From Microvirga arsenatis (GTDB taxonomy: Bacteria; Pseudomonadota; Alphaproteobacteria; Rhizobiales; Beijerinckiaceae), in NCBI RefSeq assembly GCF_009910705.1, contig NZ_JAAAXJ010000004.1, positions 1 to 64,000 on the forward strand: a stretch of 64,000 nucleotides of DNA, written 5' to 3'. Made by a program: the position numbers and the translations under genes. Positions 1 to 8,025 of the stretch are shown here, piece after piece. The first letter of the stretch is position 1. Each line of letters starts with the position of its first letter. The notes beneath the pieces were generated by a model. That model ran no database searches. It had not been told where the DNA came from and saw only the letters and a program-made list of their open reading frames with translations.

Positions 1-246
1 AACCGAAGCGGTGTACTCACCAAAGCGCAAGACTGGTCGATGTCTATTCCACCCGGCCCTCTCGGGCCGGCGCAAGGACACCGCCGCCTACGCTTCTCTT
101 TCCTTCTCAACAATGTCAAAGAGCAAACGTCCCACAAGAGACAAAACATAGCCCCCGCAGAACAAGTCCCGGTCCTAACCGAAGTCAGGCCCATAAGCCC
201 AGGTTCTGTGGAAGAGCACATCGCCAGCCGCATCAGCAGCGGCGAT
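1..246 (-). other. rRNA operon leader (truncated; 16S rRNA expected just beyond the left edge)
   Basis: Read on the minus strand, this segment follows a strong consensus promoter and carries a boxA-type antitermination signal. Next comes the purine-rich GAGAAGGAAAGAGAAGCG stretch that typically precedes 16S rRNA in Rhizobiales, and then a GC-rich hairpin (positions 54-71, 7-bp arms CCGGCCC/GGGCCGG). No protein-coding potential is evident. I infer that it is the 5' leader of an rrn operon transcribed leftwards, with the 16S gene starting within tens of bases to the left of position 1. No mature rRNA sequence is visible in the window itself. Confidence 0.7.
114..125 (-). promoter_or_regulatory. 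boxA-like antitermination site of the rRNA leader
   Basis: Minus-strand sequence TGCTCTTTGACA differs by one base from the enterobacterial rrn boxA TGCTCTTTAACA, the NusB/NusE binding site that protects rRNA transcripts from Rho. It lies about 120 bases downstream of the predicted start of transcription, in front of the pre-16S leader sequence. Confidence 0.7.
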
Positions 247-7281: not shown

Positions 7282-7530
7282 CTGCGCTGGCTCACCTCTC
7301 CCTGAGGGAGAGGTCGCGCCTTCAGGCGCGGGTGAGGGGTTAGTGTCCTCTCCGGAGACCGCTCTCCCCCTCGCGTTCGCTCGACCTCTCCCCGCCGGGG
7401 AGAGGTGAACCTGCGTCACGCTGGTCCAGTTCAGCGCTCACACCCCCACCCTAGCCCTCCCCGCAAGGGGATGGAAATACCGCGCTCCATCCTGCACGCG
7501 ATCCCGGATCGGCTTCGCCGTCCGGGATGA
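7282..7530. repeat. Intergenic inverted-repeat cluster downstream of purC
   Basis: Several palindromes lie back to back. CCTCTCCC-TGA-GGGAGAGG is at 7295-7313, a GCGCC/GGCGC hairpin at 7316-7329, and CCTCTCCCC-GCC-GGGGAGAGG at 7385-7405. A CCCCACCCTAGCCCTCCCC half-element near 7442-7470 is related to the elements at 15.3 and 18.2 kb. A CCGGAT/ATCCGG-type hairpin near 7500-7530 is related to the one at 35.4 kb. These are REP-like elements, and the distal hairpin could also end transcripts coming from either side. Confidence 0.7.
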
Positions 7531-7815
7531 CGCAGGTGGTGAGTCTCTCAAAGATCCAGCGCCTTCGGGCCCGCAGCGTGAGCTGCGAGCCGTCGGGTTT
7601 GCTCGAGGGTGGCGCTTGGGGCAGCCCGGCTCGATGGGTGGTGGTGTGGATGGAAGAGCTGGACGGCCTCTTCGCGCACGGTTCTTTTCAGGCGGACCTG
7701 GAGCAGGCCAGGATCGGCCTCCCGCGACCACAGGATTGCGAGCCCTGCGGCGGGACCGTGCCTGCTCCCACACTGCGACGCCTCGCGAGCGCGCCCCTCA
7801 CAGGAGCAGATCTAC
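7530..7815 (-). ncRNA. Candidate structured non-coding RNA, unknown class
   Basis: On the minus strand a consensus promoter (7821-7849) opens onto a segment with no convincing reading frame but strong secondary structure. A rod-like hairpin spans 7768 to 7700, with outer stem GGAGCAGGC/GCCTGCTCC (9 bp), then TCCCG/CGGGA (5 bp), then CCGCAGG/CCTGTGG (7 bp) and a 9-base loop. The 5' end carries CTGCTCC (7803-7809), which can instead pair with the GGAGCAG of the outer stem, so two exclusive folds exist. I see no hallmark of tmRNA, RNase P RNA or SRP RNA; 6S RNA cannot be excluded. The 3' end is a guess, set at the repeat near 7530. Confidence 0.5.
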
Positions 7816-7820
7816 ACAAC

Positions 7821-7849
7821 GATATAGCCGAGCTTGCAGCACCTGTCAA
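7821..7849 (-). promoter_or_regulatory. Consensus sigma-70 promoter facing left, in front of the candidate RNA
   Basis: Minus strand TTGACA (7844-7849), exactly 17 bases, then TATATC (7821-7826). It resembles the rRNA promoter at 253-282 in both boxes, an unusual strength for an intergenic region with no protein gene on that strand. Transcription would start near 7814. Confidence 0.65.
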
Positions 7850-7877
7850 GAACAAAGTAAGAACATTGCACAGGCCT

Positions 7878-8025
7878 CACCTGCCCGCACCCTCGCCCTC
7901 TCCCCGCTGCGGGAGAGGGTGGCCTGCGCAGCAGGCCGGGAGAGGGGCCGTGTTCACCCGGTACTCCCCCTCTCCCGGCTCGCTCCGCTCGCCACCCTCC
8001 CCCGCACAGGAGGGAGGGAAAAGTG
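7878..8025. repeat. Inverted-repeat element with CCCTCTCCC arms
   Basis: A pair of imperfect hairpins, CCCTCTCC...GGGAGAGGG and its inverted partner, flank about 60 bases that include GGCCTGCGCAGCAGGCC. The same architecture (arms, then GGTGGC, then GCCGGGAGAGG) recurs at 17203-17332, so this is a dispersed family. It separates the candidate RNA promoter from the Ada-like gene. Confidence 0.65.

What the first reader, a model, noticed from the sequence alone, without database searches (positions are those of the whole stretch)
7530..7850. Promoter-driven, strongly structured minus-strand RNA in a gap without a protein gene
Seen directly: TTGACA-N17-TATATC (7821-7849) is as good as the rRNA promoter at the left edge and drives a segment with no protein-like frame. 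That segment folds into a 69-base rod (outer stem of 9 bp, then 5 bp, then 7 bp). The strand GGAGCAG can pair either with the 5' CTGCTCC or with the downstream GCCTGCTCC, giving two exclusive folds as in an attenuator or a switch-like RNA. Known: tmRNA, RNase P and SRP RNAs have hallmarks that are absent here. Inference: an abundant regulatory or stable RNA, possibly a divergent 6S or a new class.
Basis: partly seen in the sequence, partly recalled or inferred. Interest (0 to 1): 0.75.

Follow-up and report, generated by a model that had tools for sequence, protein, structure and literature searches.

The report
SOS-controlled multicopy structured RNA family
The stretch is one of about two dozen copies, scattered through a soil bacterium's genome, of an apparently undescribed folded RNA whose promoter carries the switch for the DNA-damage (SOS) response; what the RNA does is unknown.

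Summary
The promoter is real, but the feature is not a single gene. Window 7864-7546 (minus) is one copy of a dispersed non-coding element of about 305 bp: BLAST finds 24 copies in this genome, a covariance model 26. Named relatives are Microvirga; 41 of 48 genomes of the genus carry 1-34 copies. A LexA operator (GTTC-N7-GTTC) overlaps the promoter in all 24 BLAST copies. The own lexA and an imuA-like gene carry boxes of this type. The body is a structured RNA: 93.5% of cells pair, 28 of 75 pairs change on both sides, 0 of 500 shuffles reach this; G-U outnumbers A-C 313 to 65, fixing the strand. No Rfam family matches. Copies at orthologous sites resemble their own genome's copies more (57 of 57 pairs): concerted evolution. 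Multicopy relatives occur elsewhere in the order. In 22 of 28 genomes some copies end within one mismatch of the rRNA BoxA. The proposed switch is not conserved (6 of 47). Expression and function are untested; best guess: a DNA-damage-induced, trans-acting RNA.

The parts
7546..7864 (-). whole element: LexA box, promoter, structured RNA, BoxA-like tail
   Evidence: BLAST, alignment and covariance model
7850..7864 (-). LexA operator GTTCTTACTTTGTTC (GTTC-N7-GTTC)
   Evidence: motif in print for Caulobacter (PMC12700426, passage seen)
7844..7849 (-). -35 TTGACA
7821..7826 (-). -10 TATATC; start of transcription would lie near 7814 (not tested)
7761..7810 (-). P1 (7810-7803 with 7768-7761) enclosing the near-invariant GAGGGGCGCGCTCGCGAGGCGTCGC
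   Evidence: 7 of 8 pairs with double-sided change
7775..7794 (-). core hairpin, almost invariant
   Evidence: 99.7% of cells paired, no double-sided change
7678..7759 (-). P2 (7759-7755 with 7682-7678), closes a multi-branch domain
7721..7754 (-). P3 arm
7690..7719 (-). P4 arm; the region is extended in the long class (36 of 128 non-redundant copies)
7612..7677 (-). P5 arm with hypervariable C/A-rich loop
7605..7799 (-). proposed pseudoknot GAGGG (7799-7795) with CCCTC (7609-7605)
   Evidence: 97% of cells pair but no double-sided change; not supported by the shuffle test in distant relatives
7568..7591 (-). P6 terminal hairpin
   Evidence: 5 of 10 pairs with double-sided change
7546..7556 (-). 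degenerate BoxA-like end GATCTTTGAGA (family form GCTCTTTGACA)

Best explanation
It is one locus of a dispersed multigene family encoding a multi-branched structured RNA of about 270 nt. Steps shown from sequence: LexA operator plus sigma-70-type promoter in nearly every full-length copy; a conserved, covarying RNA on one strand; many unlinked copies, mostly between genes and in either orientation; homogenisation within genomes. Steps inferred: LexA cleavage after DNA damage derepresses some two dozen promoters at once, and the RNA accumulates and acts in trans, the copy number providing dosage. The least certain step (about 0.2) is the target: the rRNA-type BoxA at the 3' end in many genomes suggests binding of NusB-S10 (the Nus antitermination complex), which would divert it from rRNA transcription and damp ribosome synthesis during repair.
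For: LexA box: all 24 BLAST copies of the own genome, plus the two second-type copies, make up 26 of the 42 sites of the box pattern, against 0 for the reversed control; 62 of 63 full-length copies found by BLAST have it. A box of this type stands upstream of lexA (TIGR00498) and of an ORF weakly matching ImuA. TTGAC and TATA are 0.95-1.00 conserved. Covariation: 232 cells with double-sided change against 78 in shuffles and at most 44 in slid controls. G-U 313 against A-C 65. 36 of 41 copies overlap no predicted gene; downstream gene same orientation in 25, opposite in 16. A paralogue is closer than the orthologue in 57 of 57 pairs. BoxA 11-mer: 53 of 148 exact and 83 of 148 within one mismatch at the 3' end, none within one mismatch in three control windows.
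Against: No transcript data. Distant relatives mostly show other promoter sequences, so LexA control is not a property of the whole RNA family. BoxA is degenerate in this genome (2 of 22 copies within one mismatch) and 6 of 28 genomes show none. Seven of 48 genomes of the genus have no match, so the RNA is dispensable over evolution. Presence at a site varies between species, as a selfish element would also show. Five of 41 copies overlap a crudely predicted gene. The shuffle controls do not keep relatedness, and the structure was derived from the same alignment.
Confidence: 0.6

Rival explanations
1. A non-autonomous mobile element: the structured RNA serves the element's own spread (like a guide or bridge RNA, or a template), with SOS control timing its movement; it has no host function.
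For: High copy number with genome-specific subfamilies; presence/absence differences at the same site, and at the L058 site three occupied loci where the copy sits elsewhere, one reversed; relatives scattered through the order, often multicopy and several at contig ends.
Against: No target-site duplication signal (4.02 shared bases against 4.02 shuffled, 147 copies); the unit of roughly 305-400 bp is too short for a mobility gene; no match found on plasmids, phages or viral contigs with the searches made; many copies sit at orthologous sites in several species.
Confidence: 0.22
2. A cis-acting portable leader: an SOS promoter whose 3' BoxA makes RNA polymerase read through into the neighbouring DNA.
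For: BoxA lies at the 3' end, where it would act on downstream DNA; the downstream gene is co-directional somewhat more often than not (25 of 41).
Against: 16 of 41 downstream genes are opposite; BoxA is degenerate in most copies of this genome although the RNA fold is kept.
Confidence: 0.1
3. A DNA-level repeat (REP/BIME-like or chromosome-organising), with the RNA structure incidental.
For: Often flanked by REP-like palindromes.
Against: Strand asymmetry of G-U over A-C and covariation; promoter hexamers conserved.
Confidence: 0.03
4. A divergent member of a known RNA class such as 6S.
For: The 5' domain alone can be drawn as a rod.
Against: No match of the element to any of 4227 Rfam families at gathering thresholds, and no match with E up to 0.5 for seven loci holding relatives. 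Up to E 5 the only row overlapping the element is a 16-bit hit to a human lncRNA family, far below its threshold.
Confidence: 0.03

Closest known systems
Multicopy trans-encoded sRNA families of Rhizobiales (e.g. SmelA075/SmelA099, PMC3927594, passages seen)
   Same: Several copies per genome, said to be stress-linked, in the same order
   Different: Those are described there as chains of similar hairpin modules; this is a multi-branched fold of 270-500 nt with a LexA operator and up to 34 copies
SOS-regulated bacterial sRNAs (IstR-type; recalled)
   Same: LexA box at the promoter
   Different: Those are single-copy antisense regulators beside a toxin gene (recalled); here there are many copies with differing neighbours. 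Toxin genes were not searched for
Large structured RNAs GOLLD, ROOL and HEARO/omega RNA (recalled)
   Same: Large, complex RNAs of unknown or mobility-linked function; GOLLD is linked to phage induction (recalled)
   Different: No Rfam match; no match found in viral or phage collections
rRNA leader BoxA (PMC5725501, passages seen)
   Same: 3' end GCTCTTTGACA equals the 11-mer in the presumed rRNA leader at window 114-124
   Different: Sits at the 3' end of an unrelated RNA rather than ahead of rRNA

Membership tests
LexA (SOS) regulon | GTTC-N7-GTTC operator at the promoter | tested here: met
   24 of 24 own BLAST copies; 62 of 63 full-length BLAST-found copies; own lexA and an imuA-like gene carry boxes of the same type
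LexA (SOS) regulon | induction by DNA damage, dependence on LexA cleavage | not testable with these tools
   needs RNA measurements
6S RNA | covariance-model match (RF00013) | tested here: not met
   no 6S row
Riboswitch/attenuator | two mutually exclusive conserved folds | tested here: not met
   alternative run of 8 bp or more in 6 of 47 copies
Riboswitch/attenuator | downstream gene in the same orientation | tested here: not met
   25 of 41 same, 16 opposite; the kinds of downstream gene were not identified
MITE / IS derivative | target-site duplication | tested here: not met
   147 copies, no excess over shuffled pairs; exact borders are uncertain, which weakens the test
MITE / IS derivative | dispersed, presence/absence polymorphic copies | tested here: met
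IS110 bridge RNA or omega RNA | recombinase or nuclease gene in the same element | tested here: inconclusive
   the unit is too short to hold one; a trans-acting one elsewhere was not searched for
Rhizobial cuckoo-type multicopy sRNA | CCUCC-type anti-Shine-Dalgarno hairpin loops (recalled) | not tested
   not examined
BoxA-bearing RNA | binding of NusB-S10 | not testable with these tools
   sequence match only

The most novel reading that the evidence does not exclude
A new class of RNA machine: dozens of LexA-controlled loci release, on DNA damage, a structured RNA whose rRNA-type BoxA tail captures the NusB-S10 antitermination module and throttles rRNA synthesis, while the loci overwrite one another through SOS-time recombination so that the whole family evolves as one gene.
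Probability: 0.12. Interest if true: 0.92.

Novelty: categorically new. Interest (0 to 1): 0.82.

Why it matters
An RNA family with up to 34 copies per genome, a LexA operator and a clear covarying fold matches nothing in Rfam 15, and no description turned up in the paper searches made here (open-licence papers only). If it is expressed, the SOS response of these bacteria has a large RNA arm. The concerted evolution of short, unlinked, non-coding loci across a genus also poses a testable question: what keeps some 25 dispersed copies of 305 bp alike within a genome while they diverge between species?

Tried and rejected
Single conserved RNA gene: rejected, the segment is a repeat.

6S or another Rfam class: rejected. 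Most low-score rows lie on the neighbouring palindromes; one (WT1-AS_4, 16.2 bits, E 1.6, threshold 60) overlaps the 3' end of the element and is taken as chance.

Switch by exclusive folds: rejected. Thermodynamic stability as evidence: rejected, z-scores are near zero or positive.

Target-site duplication: no signal. Empty-site comparison at the L041 site (8 of 30 fetched loci occupied) and the L058 site (20 of 30) showed occupied and empty alleles, but the intergenic DNA is too diverged to place the exact junction. Only 30 of the 48 matching genomes were fetched at each site.

Pseudoknot by compensation in distant relatives: looked convincing by eye, but only 3 of 20 representatives had a run that 5% or fewer of shuffles reached, and in those three the best run is not the predicted partner. 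Kept as a proposal only.

Phage or plasmid carriage: no match. The two viral-contig hits of a looser core pattern look like chance matches on reading them, one apparently inside a methyltransferase frame.

Paper searches for a published description found none; what was seen are listings, plus passages of three papers.

Full report
What was reported. A minus-strand promoter at 7821-7849 driving a structured RNA without a protein frame. The promoter is there as described. The gap lies between purC and an Ada-like methyltransferase/regulator gene.

It is a repeat. BLAST of 7500-7860 against the window's own genome gives 42 places. The first 24 cover the element body; the other 18 rows are 32-52 bp matches to the end of the query, which is the neighbouring REP-like palindrome. 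A covariance model of the 5' part (R1, 58 sequences) finds 26 in the same genome. The two extra places appear to be C1:285287 and C23:108920, copies of a second, roughly 490-nt type that share only about the first 120 bases with the main type. The alignment of own copies shows sharp borders: the 5' edge at GTTCTYACTTTGTTCTTGAC, the 3' edge near GCGCTGGATCT.

Distribution. With R1, 41 of 48 genomes of the genus have matches, from 1 to 34 each; seven have none. Outside the genus, R1 finds six of 396 other genomes of the order at E up to 0.001. A shorter RNA-only model R2 (31 sequences, some of them from those six) finds 11 of 396 other genomes at E up to 0.01, seven of them at 0.001 or better, in five other families; 9 of the 11 have more than one match, and the weakest may be chance. 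In the family R2 finds 26 of 298 genomes: 20 of the genus and six from two other genera. In the class sample only the own genome matched, 1 of 385 at E up to 0.001. No match in plasmids, phages or viral contigs with the main searches.

Promoter and operator. The working set is 155 full-length copies out of 183 profile hits, which favours copies with an intact 5' end. In its 148 distinct sequences 145 have GTTC-N7-GTTC and 146 have TTGAC. The two GTTC halves, TTGAC and TATA are 0.95-1.00 conserved; the first eight spacer bases are 0.39-0.69; the second half of the spacer (AA-CT-GGC) is again mostly above 0.85. Part of the set was fetched with a pattern containing half of the box; in the BLAST-found part the figure is 62 of 63. 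In the own genome the pattern GTTCYNNNNTTGTTC occurs 42 times against 0 for the reversed control; 24 of these sites are the 24 BLAST copies, two the second type. GTTC-N7-GTTC is the published LexA motif of Caulobacter (PMC12700426, passage seen). Of the other sites one lies 30 bases upstream of an ORF weakly matching ImuA (NCBIfam E 6e-10, well below the cut-off; no Pfam match), and a box of the same general type, outside the pattern, lies 61 bases upstream of lexA (TIGR00498, above cut-off). In distant relatives the promoter region mostly differs, and one genome shows a different palindrome over the -35; by eye one copy outside the genus (L282) has a GTTC-N7-GTTC box. LexA control is thus mainly a trait of this genus.

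RNA structure. RNAalifold on 92 short and 35 long copies gives similar arms with many compensating pairs (one of 36 long copies, without a recognisable promoter, was dropped). On a separately made alignment of 47 diverse short copies from the same set (one of 48 selected, of intermediate length, was left out), a structure of 75 pairs, taken from RNAalifold on that alignment with weak 3' pairs removed and the pseudoknot added, has 93.5% of cells paired, 28 pairs and 232 cells with double-sided changes, and covariation score 0.255. Shuffles give 87.2%, 20.4, 78 and 0.152 (0 of 500 reach any measure); slid controls give at most 15 pairs and 44 cells. The shuffles do not keep relatedness, and the structure's origin favours it over the slid versions. 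Paired cells hold 313 G-U but only 65 A-C, so the functional strand is the window's minus strand. Single-sequence folding energy is not unusual. The GAGGG/CCCTC pseudoknot pairs in 97% of cells but shows no double-sided change, and the shuffle test in distant relatives does not support it.

Position and evolution. Of 41 copies in three genomes, 36 overlap no predicted gene and five overlap a crudely predicted one; the downstream gene is co-directional in 25 and opposite in 16. Flanks of many copies match between species on both sides. At the L058 site 20 of 30 fetched loci hold an element; 17 of these (nine short, seven long, one truncated) are followed by a shared GGAACTCTGC-like flank that the ten empty loci lack, while three sit elsewhere, one of them reversed. 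So this site looks like one old insertion whose body was later replaced. Of 130 distinct labelled copies from 28 genomes (25 of the 155 were dropped as unlabelled or identical), 100 of the 120 with a same-genome partner have their nearest neighbour in the same genome (shuffled mean 8.0, maximum 18). For orthologues I took 13 groups of loci by hand and left out its two largest components (42 and 40 loci) and several small ones. In 57 of 57 cross-genome pairs a paralogue is closer than the orthologue (mean identity 0.87 against 0.64; gaps count as differences, which lowers pairs of unequal length class). G033 was treated as M. lupini AT3.9 because contig lengths agree. This is concerted evolution, by gene conversion or an unknown route.

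BoxA. The 3' end carries GCTCTTTGACA exactly in 53 of 148 copies and within one mismatch in 83; in three control windows per copy (where available) none came within one mismatch. The same 11-mer stands at window 114-124 (minus), in what I take from recall to be an rRNA leader. The gamma-proteobacterial BoxA consensus is GYTCTTTAANA (PMC5725501, passage seen). In this genome only 2 of 22 copies are within one mismatch; 22 of 28 genomes have at least one such copy. The Nus-factor idea is therefore a lead, not a result.

Verdict. The identity (a LexA-operated, covarying structured RNA family absent from Rfam, in many dispersed copies) I hold at about 0.9. The reading that it acts in trans as a DNA-damage RNA is at 0.6, and the target is open. 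Expression itself has not been shown. I call it categorically new because the nearest kinds, multicopy rhizobial sRNAs and single SOS sRNAs, share only single traits with it; a reader who counts any structured RNA as one kind would call it a new member.

Noticed in passing
L307:1501-1990 and L330:1501-1990 (own genome C1:285287, C23:108920): A second, roughly 490-nt type of the RNA, 93% identical to each other, sharing the LexA box, promoter and core with the main type.
   Followed up: partly
window 7827-7835 (minus): The half of the spacer next to the -10 (AA-CT-GGC) is as conserved as the promoter hexamers across copies; reason unknown.
   Followed up: no
L345, L354, L362 (genome G398) upstream of the RNA: The -35 sits in a (near-)palindrome AATAATCCTTGAC...GTCAAGGATTAT, suggesting a different repressor operator where Microvirga has the LexA box.
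   Followed up: no
L339, L342, L349, L350: In other genera the RNA follows a conserved TTATCCCCGC...(A/G)(C/A)AATG-like upstream block, not a TTGACA promoter.
   Followed up: no
window 7500-7531 and about 7890-7946: REP-like palindromes (GTCATCCCGGACGGCGAAGCCGATCCGGGATC on the minus strand; CCCTCTCCC type) flank this copy, and similar ones flank many other copies.
   Followed up: partly
window 114-124 (minus): GCTCTTTGACA, a BoxA-like site in what looks like an rRNA leader at the left edge, where the contig begins.
   Followed up: partly
L302:1680-1860: A viral contig holds a GC-rich segment resembling the RNA core just upstream of an ORF; probably chance.
   Followed up: no
L311, L318, L320 (own genome): Further LexA-like boxes (GTTCTNGNTTTGTTC) beside genes not tested here; one lies about 220 bases upstream of an ORF that looks DnaB-like by eye.
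   Followed up: no
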